In this document: positions 18,237 to 26,938 of the stretch, piece after piece
How the letters are laid out: each line of letters opens with the position of its first letter
Position numbering within the stretch: the stretch's first letter is position 1
Assembly: GCA_965223725.1 (NCBI GenBank)
Contig: CBDCXE010000006.1
Location: 310,001 to 374,000 of the forward strand
Direction of reading: 5' to 3'
DNA from: CBDCXE01 sp965223725 [NCBI: Nitrospinota bacterium]
Lineage (GTDB): Bacteria; Nitrospinota_A; UBA7883
DNA: 64,000 bases
Made by a program: the position numbers and the translations under genes
The notes under the pieces: generated by a model
Seen by the model: the letters and a program-made list of their open reading frames with translations, nothing else
The model's database searches: none
Told to the model about the DNA's origin: nothing

Positions 18237-18845
18237 CTAGAACTTGCGTAACAAACCTATAACAACACCCTGTATCGTCACCCGATCGGCCGGGACAGTG
18301 ATCGGCTCCATCGCCGCATTGGCAGGCTGCAACCGAACAGTATTGCCCTCCAGATAATATTTCTTTAACGTCGCGCTATCGTTATCCACCAGCGCAACGA
18401 CAGTCTCGCCGTTTTCCGCGCGGCTACGCTCGTCGACTATCACATAATCGCCGTCCTGGATATGTTCTTCCACCATAGAGTCGCCCTTGACCTTCAGAAC
18501 GAAGGTGCGGGCCCTTCCCAGCATATCGCCCGGGATAGAGATGCTCTCCTCCATCTGGTAAGCCTCCACCGGGACGCCAGCGGCGATGGTCCCCAGCAGT
18601 GGCGCCTCCATGGGCGTCGACTTACCTGGTGTATCAACCTCCGTTAGTTCAATGGCGCGGCTAAGGTTACGGTACCGCTTAAAAAGCCCCTTTGCTTCAA
18701 GGTTGGTCAGATGTTTATGGATCGTGGCAGGGGACGACAGACCAAAATGCTCCCCGATTTCCGCGATGCTGGGCGCGTAACCTTTATCGTTGATGAACGA
18801 CACAATAAAATCGTAAATCAGCTTTTGCCGTTTTGTAAGATGCAT
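18237..18845 (-). CDS. lexA: LexA repressor
   Basis: This 202-residue SOS repressor has an N-terminal winged helix-turn-helix (residues 1-65, with SIAEIGEHFGLSS) and a C-terminal autoprotease domain. The self-cleavage site is Ala89-Gly90 in TIAAGVPVEA. The catalytic dyad is Ser123 (KGDSMVEEHIQDGDYVIV) and Lys161 (SATLKKYY). RecA filaments trigger cleavage and derepress DNA-repair genes. I found no clear SOS box in its own upstream region, though a lineage-specific operator could be missed. Confidence 0.96.
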   Translation of the reverse strand: MHLTKRQKLIYDFIVSFINDKGYAPSIAEIGEHFGLSSPATIHKHLTNLEAKGLFKRYRNLSRAIELTEVDTPGKSTPMEAPLLGTIAAGVPVEAYQMEESISIPGDMLGRARTFVLKVKGDSMVEEHIQDGDYVIVDERSRAENGETVVALVDNDSATLKKYYLEGNTVRLQPANAAMEPITVPADRVTIQGVVIGLLRKF

Positions 18846-19191: not shown

Positions 19192-20541
19192 CTATTTTTC
19201 CAGCTTGGAAAAAACCAAACTGGTTTTTATTGCCATACCGGTCTGAGCTTCCAGCGCTAGTAACCGTAATTTTAATTCATCAACTTCCGCCAACCGCGCT
19301 TCCAGCTCTGCGATCTTCGCGTCTTTCTCTTTCACCACATCATACAGCCCCTGGATGGCGGCGAGGGCTACTCCATCCGCGTCGAGGGTGGAGATCCCCT
19401 TTTCGTCATGACCCAGGCTGTACGCCTTGTAAAAATCCTGCGCCATCGGGCCCATATGCCGCACCGGCGCGTCCACACCCTTGTACTGCCAGGTGGCTAT
19501 CTCCATCTGAGCCAGTTTATCCAATACCTTGCGGGCGTCCACCTTCACCACCTTCTCCTTCGATGCCCGATCACTCATGGCTACCCATGCCGTGGCGCCA
19601 GGGTTCAGACGCGCCCCGAGGTTGGCTGCCGCGTTGGTAAACAGAAGGTAGCCACCTCTGGCTCGGAACGTCACCTGGTTATGATTGGATGATTGAATAT
19701 CGGTGTTGGTGCTGTCGCCCCATACGAAAGCTCCTGTGTGGACGGCCTTGGCCCTTCTGCCCACGGCAAAGCTATAGCCTGCGGCCGCGTTGCCATGCCC
19801 ACCCGGGATGGTGGAAAAAATACCGTAGGCCTGGTTAAAAGCTCCGCCGCCCACCACGGCGTAATTATTGCCAGCAAAGTTTTTGTAGCCGCCACCCACG
19901 GTGGAATATTTCCCGCTGGCGATGTTACGTAGGCCTCCGTCCACAGTTGAAAAACTGCCACTGGCCATGTTAACGGCGCCTCCGCCCACGGTGGATTCAG
20001 AGCCGCTGGCGGTGTGACCCCATCCGCCACTCACGGTGGAAATGTAGCCGCTGGCTCTGTTACTGGTACCTCCGCCCACGGTGGCAAATCGGCCACTGGC
20101 ATTGATTTTTTTACCTCCGCCCACGGTGGAACCCAAGCCGCTGGCGGCGTTTTCCCAGCCTCCGCCCACAGTGGATCGCTGTCCGCTGGCGGTGTTACTA
20201 TCCCCTCCGCCCACGGTGGAACCCAAGCCGCTGGCGATGTTGCTATCTCCTCCGCCTACGGTGGCGTGGGTTCTGTCGGCATCGGTTCCGGCGTTGTCGC
20301 CCGCCTGGTTGTTCAATCCGCCGCCTATTGTGCCCCAGTTGTCGGTCACTTTGTTAAAGTTTATAAGGAAAGGACTACCACCCCCACTGATGGTGGCTCC
20401 TTCTATTGCGGTGATACTGTTATAGAGCGGGTTTTCTTCAACGTTCGGGACCTGCGCGCTGGCCAGGCCTGTCATTACAAGCATGGATATGGCCGCGACG
20501 GCGAATGAAGATAACCAGTGGTCAAACGATCTGTTTTTCAT
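19192..20541 (-). CDS. Exported YadA-head-like repeat protein with C-terminal S74 intramolecular chaperone
   Basis: This 449-residue protein has a signal peptide ending at ASA (residue 29). Residues 94-258 are eleven repeats of exactly 15 residues, typically STVGGGxxNxASGxx, like the left-handed beta-roll heads of trimeric adhesins. A linker leads to a peptidase S74 domain (residues 323-430) that starts SDRASKEK. Ser323 and Lys328 have the spacing I recall for the self-cleaving dyad of phage endosialidase chaperones. The domain ends in a coiled coil. It likely trimerises, folds and releases its chaperone by autocleavage. A surface or fibre role is inferred. Confidence 0.85.
   Translation of the reverse strand: MKNRSFDHWLSSFAVAAISMLVMTGLASAQVPNVEENPLYNSITAIEGATISGGGSPFLINFNKVTDNWGTIGGGLNNQAGDNAGTDADRTHATVGGGDSNIASGLGSTVGGGDSNTASGQRSTVGGGWENAASGLGSTVGGGKKINASGRFATVGGGTSNRASGYISTVSGGWGHTASGSESTVGGGAVNMASGSFSTVDGGLRNIASGKYSTVGGGYKNFAGNNYAVVGGGAFNQAYGIFSTIPGGHGNAAAGYSFAVGRRAKAVHTGAFVWGDSTNTDIQSSNHNQVTFRARGGYLLFTNAAANLGARLNPGATAWVAMSDRASKEKVVKVDARKVLDKLAQMEIATWQYKGVDAPVRHMGPMAQDFYKAYSLGHDEKGISTLDADGVALAAIQGLYDVVKEKDAKIAELEARLAEVDELKLRLLALEAQTGMAIKTSLVFSKLEK
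19768..20262 (-). repeat. Eleven in-frame 45-bp tandem repeats
   Basis: The repeats encode the 15-residue beta-roll units of the S74 chaperone protein. The glycine and asparagine codons are the most conserved positions. They are degenerate at DNA level, which argues for age and against recent expansion. Confidence 0.85.
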
Positions 20542-21097: not shown

Positions 21098-21103
21098 GTG
21101 AAT

Positions 21104-22087
21104 ATGAAACCTGAAGTCATACAAACCAGATCAACGCTTGGTTTTAGCGATTGGTGGACACATCTGAAGGCGCGGCTCGGCTTCAACCGCATGGGTCATT
21201 TGGTTGAACCTGGGTTATACTCGCTGGGCGCGCCGAACAAGGCGTCGCCTGTTTTTGTCACCGCAAACTATACGCTCAGTTTCGATGCCTTACGATCTGC
21301 CCTGGGTGGTATCGACTGCTATATCATGGTCCTGAACACTAAGGGCGTGAACGTATGGTGCGCTGCAGGCAAGGGAACGTTTGTGACAGGGGAGCTTGCG
21401 GATAAAATCGAATCGACACAACTGGACAAAGTAGTAGCGCATAAAACTGTCATCCTCCCTCAACTGGGCGCGTCCGGTGTCGCGGCGCACCTTGTTAAAA
21501 AGCAGACCGGTTTCAAGGTTGAATATGGCCCTGTGCTGGCCCTTGATTTGCCAAAGTACCTGGTTAGTCATCAGGCCACACCGGAAATGCGAAAAGTACA
21601 ATTCCCGTTACTCGACCGGATTGTCCTGATACCGATTGAGGTGAAGGCGGCCATTTTGCCGTTATCGGCTGTATGCGCTGTTATATTTTTCGCGGTTGGC
21701 GCCATACCGGCGATAGGCCTGTTCATATGCGCGCTTGCCGGCATTCTGCTATTTCCGATGTTGTTGCCAATTATTCCGGGGCGTGATTTCAGCGCAAAAG
21801 GCGCCTTGTTAGGGGCGTTAATCAGCGCGCCGTTTGTTTTAACATCCATAGCAGCTGCAGACACCCCTATATGGGAAAGGATAGTGATCGCAGTTTTTTT
21901 CCTGCTGGCGGTTCCATCGGCCACGGCGTTTTTTGCGCTCAACTTTACTGGCGCCACCACGTTCGCATCACCTAGCATGGCGCGCAGAGAGATATTCAGA
22001 TATGTTCCTGTAATGGTGTGGAGCTTTGGCATTGCAGTCATTCCGGGGGTCGCAAGAACATTGTTCTTACTTTTTGGAGGCGCATGA
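21104..22087 (+). CDS. hgcA: HgcA, corrinoid methyltransferase for mercury methylation
   Basis: This 327-residue protein (or 329 from the GTG at 21098) has a soluble corrinoid-binding domain and a C-terminal membrane domain of five predicted helices, the layout unique to HgcA. The cap-helix motif NVWCAAGKGTF places the strictly conserved Cys at residue 86. In studied HgcA it coordinates cobalt, and loss of this Cys abolishes methylation. HgcA donates a methyl group from its corrinoid to Hg(II). The tail-to-head junction with hgcB (TGA directly followed by ATG) confirms the pair. The ATG at 21104 has GAGAAG seven bases upstream and is preferred. The methyl donor may be methyl-H4MPT or methyl-folate. 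Confidence 0.95.
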   Translation: MKPEVIQTRSTLGFSDWWTHLKARLGFNRMGHLVEPGLYSLGAPNKASPVFVTANYTLSFDALRSALGGIDCYIMVLNTKGVNVWCAAGKGTFVTGELADKIESTQLDKVVAHKTVILPQLGASGVAAHLVKKQTGFKVEYGPVLALDLPKYLVSHQATPEMRKVQFPLLDRIVLIPIEVKAAILPLSAVCAVIFFAVGAIPAIGLFICALAGILLFPMLLPIIPGRDFSAKGALLGALISAPFVLTSIAAADTPIWERIVIAVFFLLAVPSATAFFALNFTGATTFASPSMARREIFRYVPVMVWSFGIAVIPGVARTLFLLFGGA

Positions 22088-22378
22088 ATGATAGCTACAT
22101 CGGAACTGAACAGTTTGCGATATGACCCTCAAAAATGTGTCAATTGTGAGCTTTGTATATTTGTTTGTCCACATGCGGTATTTACTCATGGCGAAAATGT
22201 TGTCGTCGACGTTAAAATGAATGATTGTATGGAGTGCGGCGCCTGCGCAGTAAACTGCCCCACCGAAGCTATAGAAGTCGATAGCGGTGTAGGATGCGCA
22301 TATGCTATGATGCGAAATTCGATAACAGGACAAAGCGACTCTATCTGTTCAGCCAATGTCAAGACTTCCTGCGGCTGA
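22088..22378 (+). CDS. hgcB: HgcB, ferredoxin partner of HgcA
   Basis: This 96-residue dicluster ferredoxin has two 4Fe-4S motifs, Cys17/20/23/27 (CVNCELCIFVCP) and Cys47/50/53/57 (CMECGACAVNCP). The second is followed by the HgcB signature VDSGVGCAYAMM with the extra conserved Cys70. In the family HgcB reduces the HgcA corrinoid and its tail cysteines bind mercury. Here the tail ends KTSCG, with Cys95 alone and Cys87 upstream, where I expect a vicinal pair. GGAGG lies eight bases before the ATG. Translation is probably coupled to hgcA. Confidence 0.94.
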   Translation: MIATSELNSLRYDPQKCVNCELCIFVCPHAVFTHGENVVVDVKMNDCMECGACAVNCPTEAIEVDSGVGCAYAMMRNSITGQSDSICSANVKTSCG

Positions 22379-22439
22379 TAAAACTGAATAACGTTTTCGT
22401 TTATCCGTCTAACCAGGGTAAACATGTTTGGAGATTATA

Positions 22440-22874
22440 ATGACCAGGTCTATAACTCGTATGCTCTCTTCGATAGCGATAGCCGCCCTCCTGTTCGGTA
22501 TGCCGGCGATGGCGATCGAGGAGCCTGTAGAAGCGGTCGAGGCGCCTGCGCCGCTGAAAGCGATCGCCCTCTATTATCACGCCAATTGGTGAGTGTTGTG
22601 CCAGAAGGTGGGTCCCATCTTCGAAAGTTTGAAAACAGCTTATGAAGGCAAACCTATACAGTTCCTCAAGCTCGACCTGACCAGCAGATACACCGTCGAT
22701 GGCGCGGTGAAGGATGGCCAGAGGATCGGTGTGAAAGATATATTCGATTATAACAGGAGCACCGGGGTCATCGTTCTTGTCAACCCGGACACGATGCAGG
22801 CTATCGACAGCTTTGGCTCGACCCATTCGGAGGACGATATCCGCTCCGCCATCGATAAAGCAATCGGGCTGTAA
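22440..22874 (+). CDS. Periplasmic thioredoxin-like selenoprotein with a UxxC motif
   Basis: The frame runs from an ATG with GGAG six bases upstream through an in-frame TGA (22590-22592) to a TAA, giving 144 residues. A signal peptide ends at AMA (residue 25). The active site reads HANW-U-VLCQKVGPIF, with the TGA exactly where thioredoxins have the first Cys of WCxxC and Cys54 as the second. Downstream sequence keeps a thioredoxin-fold pattern (FLKLDLTSRYT, STGVIVLVNP). A SECIS-like hairpin follows the TGA, so I read it as selenocysteine 51. It sits 61 bases after hgcB and 16 before recG. A redox or mercury-handling role is inferred. The alternative is a nonsense mutation. Confidence 0.85.
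22593..22622 (+). promoter_or_regulatory. Bacterial SECIS-like hairpin
   Basis: GAAGGTG at 22604-22610 pairs with CATCTTC at 22616-22622, one G-U pair included, leaving the loop GGTCC. The GGUC loop element begins 18 bases after the TGA, the same distance as in E. coli fdhF as I recall it, whose loop also carries GGUC. Confidence 0.75.
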
Positions 22875-22890
22875 CCATTTAGGATTCGCT

Positions 22891-25011
22891 GTGGCCAAAA
22901 CGCCGAACAACCTGTCGAGCCCGGTGCAGTTCATCAAAGGTGTGGGGCCGAAAAAGGCGGAGCTGTTTGCAAAGCTGGGCGTGCATACCGTCGAGGATCT
23001 TCTATACCATTTCCCCACCCGGTACGAGGACCGATCCACCATCAAAACCATATCGCAGATCGAGGTGGGCGAGACCGCGGTGGTGGAAGCGTCGGTGCAA
23101 AGCGTTGCCGCAATTCCACGGCGGAAAGGGCGGCGGGTGTTCGAAGTGATATTCCAGGACGACACCGGCATACTGCGCGCGTCGTGGTTCGCCTTTTCGG
23201 AAAAGGCGTTGCGGGCCAGGTTCGTGGTCGGCTCTGGCTGGGTTGTCTCCGGCAAGGTCAGCTTCAATAACTATCGGCGCAGCAAAACCATGATCCATCC
23301 CGACACGGAGCCGAAGGTCGATGACGCGGAAGGGCCCGACTCCATCCACTTCGGCCGCATAGCGCCGGTATACCCGTTGACCGAAGGGCTATCGCAGAAA
23401 TCGGTCCGGGCGGCTATTCATACAGCGCTGGACCAGGCGGGCCATATGGTGGATATCGTCCCGGAATATCTGAATCAACGGCTCGAACTGCCAGCGCTGG
23501 CGGAATCTGTGAAACAGACCCATTGGCCGCCGGAGGATGCCGACCTGGGCCGGTTCGCCAACTTTCAGGCGCCGGAACAGAAGAAACTGATCTTCAACGA
23601 ATTCTTCCTGCTCCAGACCGGCCTCGCGCTGAAACGGAACCAGAACCACAAACAGGAAATCGCGGGGACCGCCATGCAGATCGACAAAAGGTTGAGCGCC
23701 AAAATACGATCGTACCTACCGTTCGAGCTGACCGGGGCGCAGACAAAAGTGTTGAACGAAATCGCGAAAGATTTGCGCAGTGATTCGCCGATGAACCGCC
23801 TGTTGCAGGGCGATGTTGGCGCCGGAAAAACCGCCGTGGCGCTCTGTTGCGCGCTGATAGCCGTGGCCAACAAAAAGCAGGCGGCCATAATGGCGCCGAC
23901 GGAGATCCTGGCCGGCCAGCACTACAAGAACATCACGAACCTGCTCGGCGCCACAAAAATAAATATTGAACTGCTGACCGCCGGATCCGCTGGCAAGAAA
24001 GCTGTATATGAAAAAATCGAGCGGGGCGACACCCACATAGCCATCGGCACCCACGCGCTGATCCAGGAAAATGTAACCTTCCACGACCTGGGGCTGGTGG
24101 TGGTGGATGAGCAGCACCGGTTCGGCGTGCTGCAGCGGGCGGAGCTGATCAAAAAAGGTTTAAGCCCGCATACTTTGATAATGACCGCCACACCGATCCC
24201 GCGCACGCTGGCCATGACCTTGTATGGCGACCTGGACGTGTCGGTGATCGACGAACTGCCGCCGGGTCGTCCGCCGCTGGAGACGAAGATATATACTCCG
24301 CAAACCAGGGCCGCTGCCATCAACATAGTCCGCCAGCAGATCGCCAAAGGGAAGCAAGCATACATCGTCTATCCGCTGGTGGAGGAGAGCGAAAAACTGG
24401 AGCTGAAAGCGGCGGTAACCATGTTCGAGCAGTTTCGGCAAGACGAGTTCGAAGGTCTGCGCCTCGGTCTGACCCATGGCCGGATGAAAAGCGCGGAGAA
24501 AGAGCAAGTGATGGACCAGTTCATGCGGGGCGATATCGATATACTTGTGTCCACCACTGTGATTGAAGTCGGGATCGATCAGCCGAACGCCACGGTGATG
24601 ATGATCGAACATGCCGAACGGTTCGGGCTGAGCCAGCTCCATCAACTGCGCGGCCGGGTGGGTCGGGGCGTCGATAAATCGCATTGCCTGTTGATGGCCG
24701 AGTGCAAGCCTGGGTCGCCATCGTGGGAGCGGTTGAACGTGCTGGAGAAAAGCCGTGACGGATTCAAAATCGCCGAGGCTGACCTGACGATGCGGGGGGC
24801 CGGCGATTTTTTCGGCGCCCGGCAGTCTGGCATGCCGGAGTTCAAGGTGGGCAATATACTGCGCGATTACCAGATTCTTGCCGAGGCGCGCAACGCCGCA
24901 TTCGATCTTGTGCAGGGTGACCCAAAGCTGGAAAAGCCGGAGCATCGTAACCTCCATGCCGCCCTGACGGAGAAATGGAAAGAAAAATTCGAGCTCGGCG
25001 AAATCGGCTAG
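22891..25011 (+). CDS. recG: ATP-dependent DNA helicase RecG
   Basis: This 706-residue helicase remodels stalled forks and Holliday junctions. It has the N-terminal wedge domain (FIKGVGPKKAELFAKLGV, then an OB fold), Walker A LLQGDVGAGKTAVAL, DEQH box VVVDEQHRFGV, motif III MTATPIPRTLAM and motif VI QLRGRVGRGVDKS. The GTG at 22891 has AGGA seven bases upstream and begins at VAKTPNN, the expected family start. A longer frame to 22777 is only the overlap with the selenoprotein gene. It may be co-transcribed with hgcAB, and it overlaps the convergent gene by four bases. Confidence 0.96.
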   Translation: MAKTPNNLSSPVQFIKGVGPKKAELFAKLGVHTVEDLLYHFPTRYEDRSTIKTISQIEVGETAVVEASVQSVAAIPRRKGRRVFEVIFQDDTGILRASWFAFSEKALRARFVVGSGWVVSGKVSFNNYRRSKTMIHPDTEPKVDDAEGPDSIHFGRIAPVYPLTEGLSQKSVRAAIHTALDQAGHMVDIVPEYLNQRLELPALAESVKQTHWPPEDADLGRFANFQAPEQKKLIFNEFFLLQTGLALKRNQNHKQEIAGTAMQIDKRLSAKIRSYLPFELTGAQTKVLNEIAKDLRSDSPMNRLLQGDVGAGKTAVALCCALIAVANKKQAAIMAPTEILAGQHYKNITNLLGATKINIELLTAGSAGKKAVYEKIERGDTHIAIGTHALIQENVTFHDLGLVVVDEQHRFGVLQRAELIKKGLSPHTLIMTATPIPRTLAMTLYGDLDVSVIDELPPGRPPLETKIYTPQTRAAAINIVRQQIAKGKQAYIVYPLVEESEKLELKAAVTMFEQFRQDEFEGLRLGLTHGRMKSAEKEQVMDQFMRGDIDILVSTTVIEVGIDQPNATVMMIEHAERFGLSQLHQLRGRVGRGVDKSHCLLMAECKPGSPSWERLNVLEKSRDGFKIAEADLTMRGAGDFFGARQSGMPEFKVGNILRDYQILAEARNAAFDLVQGDPKLEKPEHRNLHAALTEKWKEKFELGEIG

Positions 25012-25994
25012 AGATCGTACAGCGCGGCGGCGCAGGCGGCCGGGTCGATCCTGTCCACCGGCGTACCATCGAGTTTGTCGGGCGTATTACGCTTGATCGC
25101 GTTTTTGTACAAACGCCCATGGCCGATCAGGATGACCGGCGCATCTTTCAGCTTTTGCTTTTCGATTATCTGATCGATCGCCGTGGCAATCATCCTGTTC
25201 TGGGCGGTTAATATCTGGCGCGCTATAGACCTGATCCCATCATCGTTCAACGTTTTCACATCGGACAACACGAGCCGCGCCAACCGCATTGATGCGCCCC
25301 GTTTCGTTTTCGCTCCTCCGTCCGGGGTGGGGGTTGTGTAATCCTTTGCCGTGATATTGCCCAGGTACAGATGCGCGTCGCCGACTATAGAAAAATATTC
25401 GGGGCAGGCAACAATCCGCTTGCCATTAATCCTGATCACAGGGCAAACGCAGGCGCTGTTGGCGCGCAGATAGCCGGTGTATAACAGCTCGCCATTTCGC
25501 ATACGCTGATAATCTGTCTTGCCGATAACCGCGCACTTGCCGTTTTTGACAGGCAAAAGATCTGTGGTGGTGGAGCCGATATCGACGATCAGGCAATCGG
25601 CCAGACGGGTGGCGACCCACCGGGCCGTGGCCGCCCAGTTGGCGGAGGCCACGCTTGCCGGGCGCCTTTGGGCAGTGGCGAAAGGGACCAGGTCGCCTTC
25701 CACATTTACGATACGCAGCTCCCGGCCCTGCGCCGCCCTGCGGACGGAATCAAGGATGAACCGCACACCCTCCGTCCGGTTCGCAAAAGTGTCCGACAGC
25801 TCGCCGGTCATGGTGAGGGCGATCCGGTCCGGTCTGGATTTTTCGATTATGCTGTCAAGCAATGCAGTCAGGTCGGCGTGGTTCCTGTAAATTTCGAATG
25901 GATAAATTTTCCGCCTGGCCAACGCCGTCGCGCCAGATTTCACAACAGCGCTTTTAACATGGGCGCCGCCTATGTCGAGACCAAGCGTTTTCAT
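25008..25994 (-). CDS. H4MPT-linked C1 pathway ASKHA protein (hydantoinase/oxoprolinase-like)
   Basis: This 328-residue protein starts with a phosphate-binding loop LGLDIGGAHVKSAVV and has CLIVDIGSTTTDLLPV, both hallmarks of the actin/Hsp70/sugar-kinase ATPase superfamily. Cysteines in SACVCPVI may bind metal. The family is one I know as a probable H4MPT-linked C1 transfer pathway protein (TIGR03123-like), always near pterin C1 genes. The stop overlaps the convergent recG stop. The start overlaps the preceding ligase gene by four bases. It may be a kinase or ATPase in methylofuran or H4MPT assembly; the reaction is unknown. Confidence 0.85.
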   Translation of the reverse strand: MKTLGLDIGGAHVKSAVVKSGATALARRKIYPFEIYRNHADLTALLDSIIEKSRPDRIALTMTGELSDTFANRTEGVRFILDSVRRAAQGRELRIVNVEGDLVPFATAQRRPASVASANWAATARWVATRLADCLIVDIGSTTTDLLPVKNGKCAVIGKTDYQRMRNGELLYTGYLRANSACVCPVIRINGKRIVACPEYFSIVGDAHLYLGNITAKDYTTPTPDGGAKTKRGASMRLARLVLSDVKTLNDDGIRSIARQILTAQNRMIATAIDQIIEKQKLKDAPVILIGHGRLYKNAIKRNTPDKLDGTPVDRIDPAACAAALYDL

Positions 25995-26938
25995 TCCGTC
26001 AGAACACCCGTTGTTGAAAATTTTGTTTTTCGTCGGTTGCTGATTTTTGGCAGTTTCCTGTCCAGCATGGCGTCGATCATGACCGATGCGGGGTTGATAT
26101 CAAGCGCTGGCGACAGGGCGCAATAGCTGGTGGTCAGCCTCGGGTTTATCTCTATGACCACCGGCCCGTCATCGGTGGAAATATAGTCGAGCCCCCAATA
26201 TCCGATCAAGCCAGGGATCGCCGATTTGATTTTAGCGACAAGGTTGACCAATAGTTCGTCAGGTTGCTCGTCACTGATTTCGCCGCCTGTATACTCGAAA
26301 CCGTCGCCATCGAAAACCTGTCTGTTGACAGAGAGGATAACCGATTTGGATTCGTTCGATATAACGCTCAGGCTCATCCGCTCCCCTTCGATGAACTCCT
26401 GCGCCAGGAATTTTTCAGCAAGGGTGGAAGGGGCATTGTAAAGCTCGCCCGCCTGATGCAGCGTAACAGACTCGCCCCCGACGCCATCCACCGGTTTGCT
26501 TATCCATCGGTTTTGAAACAGCGGTGCCGGATCAAGAAAGCATTGCGCATGTATTGTCTTTGGATGTGCGATCCCCGCCCCTTCCATCGCGCGGGCGAAC
26601 AGAAGCTTGTCGCCGGTCAGGCGTATGACGTCCGGTGTGGATCCGCATACTTTAATACCTCTGTGTAACGCGGCGGCGGTCAGCTTCTCCAGGACGCCTT
26701 CCGTTTCCGGGGCGATGATCAGCGCGTAATCACACTTTTCCAAAGATGCTGTAAATAGACTCCAATAATCTTTTTCAACATGATCGACGGTGAATGGCGC
26801 CAGGTCATCCAGTTGCGAAAAATCGTCCATGGCCGCGTGGAGCATGGCGGCGCCCTCATCCAGCGGCGCGTTGTCCGGGTCGCCATGCAGTATGCCGCCG
26901 GCGCTGAAGAACTCGTAAATAAATATGCGCTTGCTCAT
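25991..26938 (-). CDS. ATP-grasp ligase, MfnD-like (tyramine/tyrosine-glutamate ligase type)
   Basis: This 315-residue ATP-grasp protein opens with RIFIYEFFSAGG, the signature of the COG1821 group that includes methanogen MfnD, which joins tyramine to glutamate in methanofuran synthesis. Other segments are ISKPVDGVGGESVTLH, LAQEFIEGERMSLSVISN and VVIEINPRLTTSY with the Mg-binding Glu and Asn. Methylotrophs with formyltransferase use methylofuran, which also carries glutamate, so this gene probably acts there. It overlaps both neighbours by four bases in the same operon. Confidence 0.83.
   Translation of the reverse strand: MSKRIFIYEFFSAGGILHGDPDNAPLDEGAAMLHAAMDDFSQLDDLAPFTVDHVEKDYWSLFTASLEKCDYALIIAPETEGVLEKLTAAALHRGIKVCGSTPDVIRLTGDKLLFARAMEGAGIAHPKTIHAQCFLDPAPLFQNRWISKPVDGVGGESVTLHQAGELYNAPSTLAEKFLAQEFIEGERMSLSVISNESKSVILSVNRQVFDGDGFEYTGGEISDEQPDELLVNLVAKIKSAIPGLIGYWGLDYISTDDGPVVIEINPRLTTSYCALSPALDINPASVMIDAMLDRKLPKISNRRKTKFSTTGVLTE

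What the first reader, a model, noticed from the sequence alone, without database searches (positions are those of the whole stretch)
22440..22874. A thioredoxin-like protein with selenocysteine in the active site (UxxC)
An in-frame TGA at 22590 stands exactly where thioredoxins have the first Cys of WCxxC, giving HANW-U-VLC. The frame before and after it is conserved in character, with a signal peptide at the start and a thioredoxin fold at the end. This is a periplasmic selenoprotein candidate that ordinary gene callers would split into two fragments.
Basis: partly seen in the sequence, partly recalled or inferred. Interest (0 to 1): 0.88.

Follow-up and report, generated by a model that had tools for sequence, protein, structure and literature searches.

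The report
Exported selenocysteine thioredoxin beside mercury-methylation genes
A small, probably exported thioredoxin-like protein carries the rare amino acid selenocysteine in its active site, and its gene sits directly behind hgcA and hgcB, the gene pair that makes toxic methylmercury, which suggests a possible unrecognised helper for handling mercury or for redox chemistry outside the cell membrane.

Summary
Window 22440-22874 reads as one 144-residue thioredoxin-like protein with a signal-peptide-like start and TGA at 22590-22592 in place of the first Cys of WCxxC. Five relatives from other genomes, 30-37% identical, have TGA at the same codon: 6 of 6 with the window. In all six a SECIS-like hairpin can form 19-22 nt after the UGA (one mismatch in one; lowest-energy fold in 4 of 6) and GGT CCC ATC is identical. 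Nine homologues from another phylum have Cys there, and 0 of 9 have these codons together. tRNA-Sec and selB occur in 4 of the 5 relatives' genomes; the window's own genome is not held. Three relatives are not linked to hgcAB, so a mercury role is plausible, not shown. The thioredoxin cis-proline is missing; it may prevent metal binding (PMC2757866 passage). Selenocysteine: about 0.95. Mercury-handling role: about 0.35.

The parts
21098..22087 (+). hgcA, corrinoid protein of mercury methylation (NVWCAAGKG, with Cys); its TGA stop abuts the hgcB ATG
   Evidence: NF040863 386.9 bits vs cut-off 275; frame; junction
22088..22378 (+). hgcB, ferredoxin of mercury methylation (GVGC, with Cys); ends ...TSCG-TGA-TAA
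   Evidence: NF040864 100.2 bits vs cut-off 99; tail
22440..22874 (+). gene of the selenocysteine thioredoxin-like protein, 144 aa, 61 nt behind hgcB, GGAG before the ATG
22440..22514 (+). predicted signal peptide (residues 1-25, ...MPAMA); cleavage point inferred
   Evidence: hydropathy of the N-terminus; no signal-peptide program was run
22590..22592 (+). in-frame TGA read as selenocysteine, residue 51 of WUxxC
22599..22601 (+). second (resolving) cysteine, residue 54; TGC in 6 of 6 UGA members
22604..22622 (+). SECIS-like hairpin GAAGGUGG-GUC-CCAUCUUC, loop GUC at 22612-22614, 19 nt after the UGA
   Evidence: constraints of the model from PMC13188914 section 5
22891..25011 (+). recG, next gene on the same strand, 16 nt on (start GTG 22891 inferred); not thought to belong to the function

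Best explanation
The gene encodes an exported thioredoxin-fold selenoprotein. SelB and tRNA-Sec decode UGA 22590 as selenocysteine with the help of an in-frame hairpin just downstream, giving a Sec-x-x-Cys pair outside the cytoplasmic membrane. It lies behind hgcA and hgcB and is probably translated from the same message. The pair most likely reduces or exchanges a disulfide, or holds a soft metal, at the outer face of the membrane, where Hg(II) would come in and methylmercury go out. Shown by comparison: UGA in place of Cys, hairpin, fold, gene order. Inferred: decoding in this very organism, export, co-transcription, chemistry. The confidence below is for an exported Sec/Cys redox or metal-binding protein; the mercury-specific part alone I put at about 0.35.
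For: TGA at the same codon in 6 of 6 UGA-type members. GGT CCC ATC identical in 6 of 6, present together in 0 of 9 Cys homologues and in 0 of 6 residue-matched Cys frames with the same Gly-Pro-Ile. The hairpin is the lowest-energy fold in 4 of 6 and meets the published loop, G, spacing and energy limits in those four. Cys at the Sec site in 9 of 9 homologues of another phylum. tRNA-Sec over the cut-off in 11 and selB in 10 of 24 genomes, both in 4 of 5 carriers; selA in 4 of 7 and selD over the cut-off in 5 of 7 genomes tested. Model with thioredoxin topology, mean pLDDT 85.6; Foldseek's best 50 PDB matches are mostly thioredoxins. Order hgcA-hgcB-this gene in the window, L028 and L091.
Against: The window's own genome is not held, so its sel genes are unknown. 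One carrier, G022, has neither tRNA-Sec nor selB over the cut-off. The hairpin is not the lowest-energy fold in 2 of 6 (L090, L095), and z-scores against shuffles are modest, -0.4 to -2.1; the 19-nt hairpin alone reaches -7.5 kcal/mol in 3 of 6. Covariation is slight: one pair changed on both sides, 56 of 500 shuffles as high. For mercury: 3 of 6 UGA members are not beside hgcAB, 5 of 7 genomes of the phylum with hgcA over the cut-off lack the gene, and no hgcAB was found in the about 3.3 kb held around 9 of 9 Cys homologues.
Confidence: 0.8

Rival explanations
1. It is a genuine exported selenoprotein but a general disulfide reductase outside the membrane; its place behind hgcAB is a lineage-specific accident of gene order with no role in mercury chemistry. 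(Compatible with the shown part of the best explanation; a rival only to the mercury step.)
For: 3 of 6 UGA members are not linked to hgcAB; no hgcAB in the about 3.3 kb held around 9 of 9 Cys homologues; five hgcA-bearing genomes of the phylum do without it.
Against: It is directly behind hgcB, on the same strand, in each of the three loci where the gene and an hgcA over the cut-off share a genome or window (window, G001/L028, G003/L091). In G002, where it stands elsewhere, hgcA is only a truncated remnant, so linkage may have been ancestral in that family.
Confidence: 0.5
2. The TGA is a true stop: a dead gene or two small proteins.
For: A frame starts at GTG 22593 right after it; TGA is an ordinary stop in this organism (hgcA).
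Against: 6 of 6 members keep TGA with conserved sequence on both sides and the same codons in the hairpin; the second half alone lacks half of the redox motif.
Confidence: 0.03
3. A sequencing or assembly error turned TGC or TGT into TGA.
For: A single base would suffice, and the window is one record.
Against: The same change would be needed at the same codon in five other assemblies.
Confidence: 0.01
4. TGA is read as Trp, Cys or another standard residue by a changed code or a suppressor.
For: None found.
Against: hgcA beside it stops at TGA; the L091 member itself stops at TGA; sel genes and tRNA-Sec exist in relatives.
Confidence: 0.01

Closest known systems
Selenocysteine thioredoxin (PF00085, UxxC; Table 1 of PMC13188914, passage)
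   Same: Thioredoxin fold, Sec first in the redox pair, Cys three residues on.
   Different: Signal-peptide-like start, seven to nine more residues before the third strand (by structure register or by alignment), no cis-proline, 26.9 bits against 96.8 for the thioredoxin equivalog TIGR01068. Whether published Sec thioredoxins share any of this was not tested.
Sec forms of HgcA and HgcB (Table 1 of PMC13188914, passages; mentioned in PMC11588087)
   Same: Selenoproteins of the mercury-methylation locus.
   Different: Here HgcA and HgcB have Cys (NVWC, GVGC) and the Sec is in a third protein. Three loci fetched here show the GVGU type of HgcB (L029, L033, L075).
SaoT, thioredoxin-like selenoprotein (NF040730, UxxC; Table 1 of PMC13188914)
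   Same: Thioredoxin-like with UxxC.
   Different: No match to the window protein up to E = 1, and not among the 25 of 26 families shown for the six members.
NF053656, TUGYCR-motif thioredoxin-fold (seleno)protein
   Same: Thioredoxin fold with a U/C motif; two of six members match weakly.
   Different: 16.4 and 18.2 bits against a cut-off of 100.
Exported thioredoxin-like reductases ResA, TlpA, DsbE, StoA
   Same: Thioredoxin-like domain with WCxxC-type motif; weak matches by some members.
   Different: Far below their cut-offs, e.g. StoA 31.1 of 210, ResA 24.9 of 170.

Membership tests
Bacterial selenoprotein gene | In-frame UGA conserved at a redox-active site in several independent sequences | tested here: met
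   6 of 6 UGA-type members
Bacterial selenoprotein gene | Homologues with Cys at the Sec position | tested here: met
   9 of 9 homologues found in 9 of 396 genomes of another phylum
Bacterial selenoprotein gene | bSECIS model: 3-9 nt loop, 4-16 bp stem, G in the first two loop positions, 16-37 nt from UGA, MFE -7.5 or lower (PMC13188914 section 5) | tested here: met
   Window: 3-nt loop GUC, 8 bp, 19 nt, -9.7 kcal/mol for the 41-nt stretch, -8.3 for the hairpin alone. Lowest-energy fold in 4 of 6 members; in L090 and L095 another fold is lower
Bacterial selenoprotein gene | selA, selB, selC, selD in the same genome | not testable with these tools
   Window's genome not held. In the five carriers: tRNA-Sec and selB over cut-off in 4, selA in 3, selD over cut-off in 3; G022 none of the four
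Thioredoxin fold | beta-alpha-beta-alpha-beta-beta-alpha topology with the redox pair at the start of helix 1 | tested here: met
   AlphaFold2 model from six sequences, pLDDT 85.6; Foldseek to thioredoxins, best E 7.4e-6
[quoted passage not shown]
   Aligned place holds Gly (5) or Ala (1) in six UGA members, Gly (3) or Ser (6) in nine Cys homologues; L143 has a Pro three residues earlier (strand). Peroxiredoxins, also of this fold, have Arg there
Thioredoxin equivalog TIGR01068 | score over the curated cut-off of 96.8 bits | tested here: not met
   26.9 bits for the window protein, 38.5 at best among six
Exported protein | signal peptide | tested here: inconclusive
   Hydrophobic stretch after 1-3 basic residues in 6 of 6; no dedicated predictor at hand
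hgcAB locus | HgcA and HgcB over curated cut-offs and adjacent | tested here: met
   (HgcB only just over: 100.2 vs 99)
hgcAB operon member | conserved adjacency or co-transcription with hgcAB | tested here: inconclusive
   Adjacent in 3 of 6 UGA members. Of 87 hgcA loci scanned as far as DNA is held (80, 7), family members in L028 and L102 only (weaker thioredoxin-like matches in L002, L069, L018). No transcript data

The most novel reading that the evidence does not exclude
A third protein of mercury methylation in one bacterial lineage: an exported selenoprotein whose Sec-x-x-Cys pair, freed from the cis-proline that may keep metals off thioredoxins, binds Hg(II) or methylmercury at the outer face of the membrane and passes it to or from HgcAB, or frees proteins from it.
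Probability: 0.3. Interest if true: 0.85.

Novelty: new variant of a known kind. Interest (0 to 1): 0.62.

Why it matters
HgcA and HgcB are the proteins known to be needed for biological methylmercury formation; how Hg(II) reaches them and how methylmercury leaves is, to my knowledge, open. A selenoprotein encoded right behind them is a concrete candidate (selenium's strong affinity for mercury is established chemistry, recalled, from no call) that can be tested by gene removal and metal-binding assays. It also points to a selenoprotein family that the curated libraries searched do not separate from thioredoxin and that a standard gene caller would split at the TGA.

Tried and rejected
HgcB with a C-terminal selenocysteine: window HgcB ends SCG-TGA-TAA where L028 and L091 end SCC and G024 TCC. 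Not supported: HgcB tails vary in the 82 read by a simple motif (39 end in CC or CCx, 43 do not; some frames may be misjudged), another ends ACG-TGA (L023), and the stretch behind this TGA was judged by eye only, not folded.

A single-protein scan of genome contigs with the thioredoxin found no relative; part of HgcA was then the bait: 569 candidates encoded a relative, the best 80 were kept. Plasmid searches: no match. Viral contigs: two hits over 20 residues, not pursued beyond use as controls.

A rough codon-score scan for read-through TGAs in the window listed three; only 22590 looks convincing. Breadth: 0 of 395 genomes of the Desulfobacula phylum and 0 of 195 of the phylum of a Myxococcota MAG at E 1e-12; both answers warn that an empty result shows nothing without a positive control, and most genomes had only their best 10 or 20 candidates scored. 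In 50 other hgcA genomes, 8 gave matches at E 1e-6, best 1.3e-9, none with a stop; the seven read out look like ordinary or TlpA-like thioredoxins with cis-proline.

The first codon control was partly confounded: only 4 of the 9 Cys homologues have Gly-Pro there and none has Gly-Pro-Ile. I therefore added a residue-matched control: 6 Cys frames with Gly-Pro-Ile, two of them near-duplicates, 0 of 6 with GGT CCC ATC. One Cys homologue, L144, has a different strong hairpin (-19.3 kcal/mol). The tree of six UGA and nine Cys members leaves the UGA members unresolved, so the direction of Sec/Cys change is unknown. The product of codon frequencies, 4e-10, assumes independence and uses uncleaned long frames; illustrative only.

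Papers: PMC13188914 (passages and section 5); PMC11588087, PMC7438021, PMC1088965, PMC2757866, PMC10349881 (passages); PMC6210436 (one reference entry); all others in search listings only. Haft and Gwadz 2023 is not held and is known here only as cited by others. That an hgcAB-linked selenothioredoxin is not in print rests on the listings in this library only.

Full report
Observation. The stretch 22440-22874 (+) reads as one 144-residue protein if the TGA at 22590-22592 is read through. Pfam Thioredoxin covers residues 41-84, on both sides of the TGA, above its cut-off. The first part looks like a signal peptide and a short linker; the TGA falls in YYHANW-U-VLC, the place of the first Cys of WCxxC.

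Surroundings. The two genes before it are hgcA (21098-22087, NF040863, 386.9 bits, cut-off 275) and hgcB (22088-22378, NF040864, 100.2 bits, cut-off 99). hgcA stops at a TGA that abuts the hgcB start, so TGA is also an ordinary stop here; 61 nt separate hgcB from the thioredoxin gene, which has GGAG before its ATG; recG probably starts 16 nt after it on the same strand.

Relatives with UGA. A scan with the protein found nothing. A scan with part of HgcA brought 80 hgcA loci. One, L028 (titled Nitrospirae bacterium isolate Dive96_bin4.192), has a relative, 42% identical over 105 residues, directly behind hgcB with TGA at the same codon. In the phylum of that genome, 24 genomes held, 5 carry the gene at E 1e-8 or better (G001 = L028's genome, G002, G003, G022, G023), each with one TGA inside; G023's match also takes in a TAA, which by coordinates is the protein's own terminal stop. 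The window's LexA is 77.4% identical to L028's over 199 residues, so the window probably comes from the same lineage (inference).

Relatives with Cys. In 396 genomes of the phylum of L038 (titled Acidobacteria bacterium), 9 have homologues at E 1e-12 or better, none with a stop inside. All nine have Cys at the Sec position.

SECIS. In the six UGA members GGT, CCC and ATC are the same in 6 of 6, although overall identity to the window is 30-37% and third-position GC runs from 0.54 to 0.82. They are part of an 8-bp hairpin with loop GUC, 19 nt after the UGA in five and 22 nt in one (positions). It is the lowest-energy fold of the 41-44 nt stretch in 4 of 6; in L090 and L095 another fold is lower, and L090 has one mismatch. 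Against it: z-scores are modest (-0.4 to -2.1), the 19-nt hairpin alone reaches -7.5 kcal/mol in 3 of 6, and covariation is slight (one pair changed on both sides, 56 of 500 shuffles as high). The stronger point is the contrast with Cys frames: 0 of 9 Cys homologues have the three codons together, but these also differ in residue, none having Gly-Pro-Ile; in six Cys thioredoxin frames that do have Gly-Pro-Ile, 0 of 6 use GGT CCC ATC. The published model asks for a loop of 3-9 nt, stem of 4-16 bp, G in the first two loop positions, 16-37 nt spacing and -7.5 kcal/mol or lower (PMC13188914 section 5); the window meets each.

Machinery. In the 24 genomes tRNA-Sec is over the cut-off in 11 and selB in 10; G001, G002, G003 and G023 have both, G022 neither. 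ARAGORN reads G001's tRNA-Sec with anticodon TCA. In seven genomes tested, selA is found in 4 (G001, G002, G020, G023) and selD over the cut-off in 5 (G001, G003, G020, G023, G024), four of them with one in-frame TGA of their own. Missing pieces may reflect incomplete assemblies; completeness was not told.

Fold. AlphaFold2 on the six-row alignment gives mean pLDDT 85.6, with 105 of 144 residues at 90 or more, and thioredoxin topology. Foldseek's best 50 PDB matches are mostly thioredoxins, best E 7.4e-6, TM 0.45-0.52 by query length. Ordinary thioredoxins have I-P-T just before the third strand; this family has seven to nine residues more there, and Gly or Ala at the aligned place in the UGA members, Gly or Ser in the Cys homologues. 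The profile-profile alignment confirms the relation (99.0% probability) but pairs the IP with I101-F102 instead, again no Pro. [quoted passage not shown] 2007 (PMC2757866, passages; the cited paper was not seen).

Is it tied to mercury? For: the gene follows hgcB directly in the window, L028/G001 and L091/G003, that is in each case found where it and an hgcA over the cut-off occur together; in G002, where it is elsewhere, hgcA survives only as a remnant of about 110 residues with NVWR for NVWC, near lexA (a misassembly is not excluded). Against: in G002, G022 and G023 no hgcA or hgcB was found on the 16, 14 and 8.8 kb held around the gene; five genomes of the phylum have hgcA over the cut-off without the gene (G010, G012, G016, G020, G024); 79 of the 80 loci do not show it in the DNA held, some of which ends near hgcA; the Cys homologues show no hgcAB in the about 3.3 kb held. 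The missing cis-proline is shared with the Cys homologues, so it is not a mercury signature. I hold the general exported reductase (0.5) above the mercury-specific role (about 0.35).

Comparison with what is known. Sec thioredoxins with UxxC and Sec forms of HgcA and HgcB are in print (PMC13188914 Table 1, passages; PMC11588087, passages). No NCBIfam cut-off is reached by any of the six members among the families shown, and the paper searches made listed no paper that I recognised as describing a selenothioredoxin linked to hgcAB. I rate it a new variant of a known kind: a thioredoxin-fold selenoprotein with a signal-peptide-like start, without cis-proline, in part of its range the third gene after hgcAB.

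Noticed in passing
window 22364-22381: HgcB ends SCG-TGA-TAA where close relatives end in two cysteines; either one of the two Cys is lost or, less likely, the TGA adds a terminal Sec.
   Followed up: partly
L029, L033, L075 (hgcB behind hgcA): HgcB frames with TGA in place of the Cys of GVGC, the published GVGU type.
   Followed up: no
G001:C19:57095-58048, G003:C125:2262-3215, G020:C4:1005397-1006353, G023:C76:52496-53419: selD genes with one in-frame TGA each, probably Sec-type SelD.
   Followed up: no
L140 4037-4366 (G002:C423): Truncated hgcA remnant with NVWR instead of NVWC, near lexA, in a genome that keeps the selenothioredoxin elsewhere.
   Followed up: partly
G001:C38:13555-13995 (L106): A second HgcA-like protein in the same genome, 169 bits, under the cut-off, with NVWCAAGGDEF.
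   Followed up: no
window 18237-18845; L028 2482-3090; L097; L104: lexA lies beside or near hgcA in several genomes of this lineage; whether this matters for regulation is unknown.
   Followed up: no
window 19192-20541 (-): Protein with adhesin-head-like repeats and a C-terminal Peptidase_S74 chaperone domain, between lexA and hgcA.
   Followed up: no
window 25011-26938 (-): H4MPT-linked C1 protein (TIGR03123, over its cut-off) and an ATP-grasp protein weakly like MfnD.
   Followed up: no
L137 6478-8292, L138 2832-4688: Similar proteins that look like radical SAM enzymes (name recalled from the motif, not searched) on the contigs of the unlinked selenothioredoxins of G023 and G022.
   Followed up: no
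L145, L146, L149: Three Cys homologues have Met/Lys/Asp-rich stretches between signal-like start and domain, possibly metal-binding.
   Followed up: no
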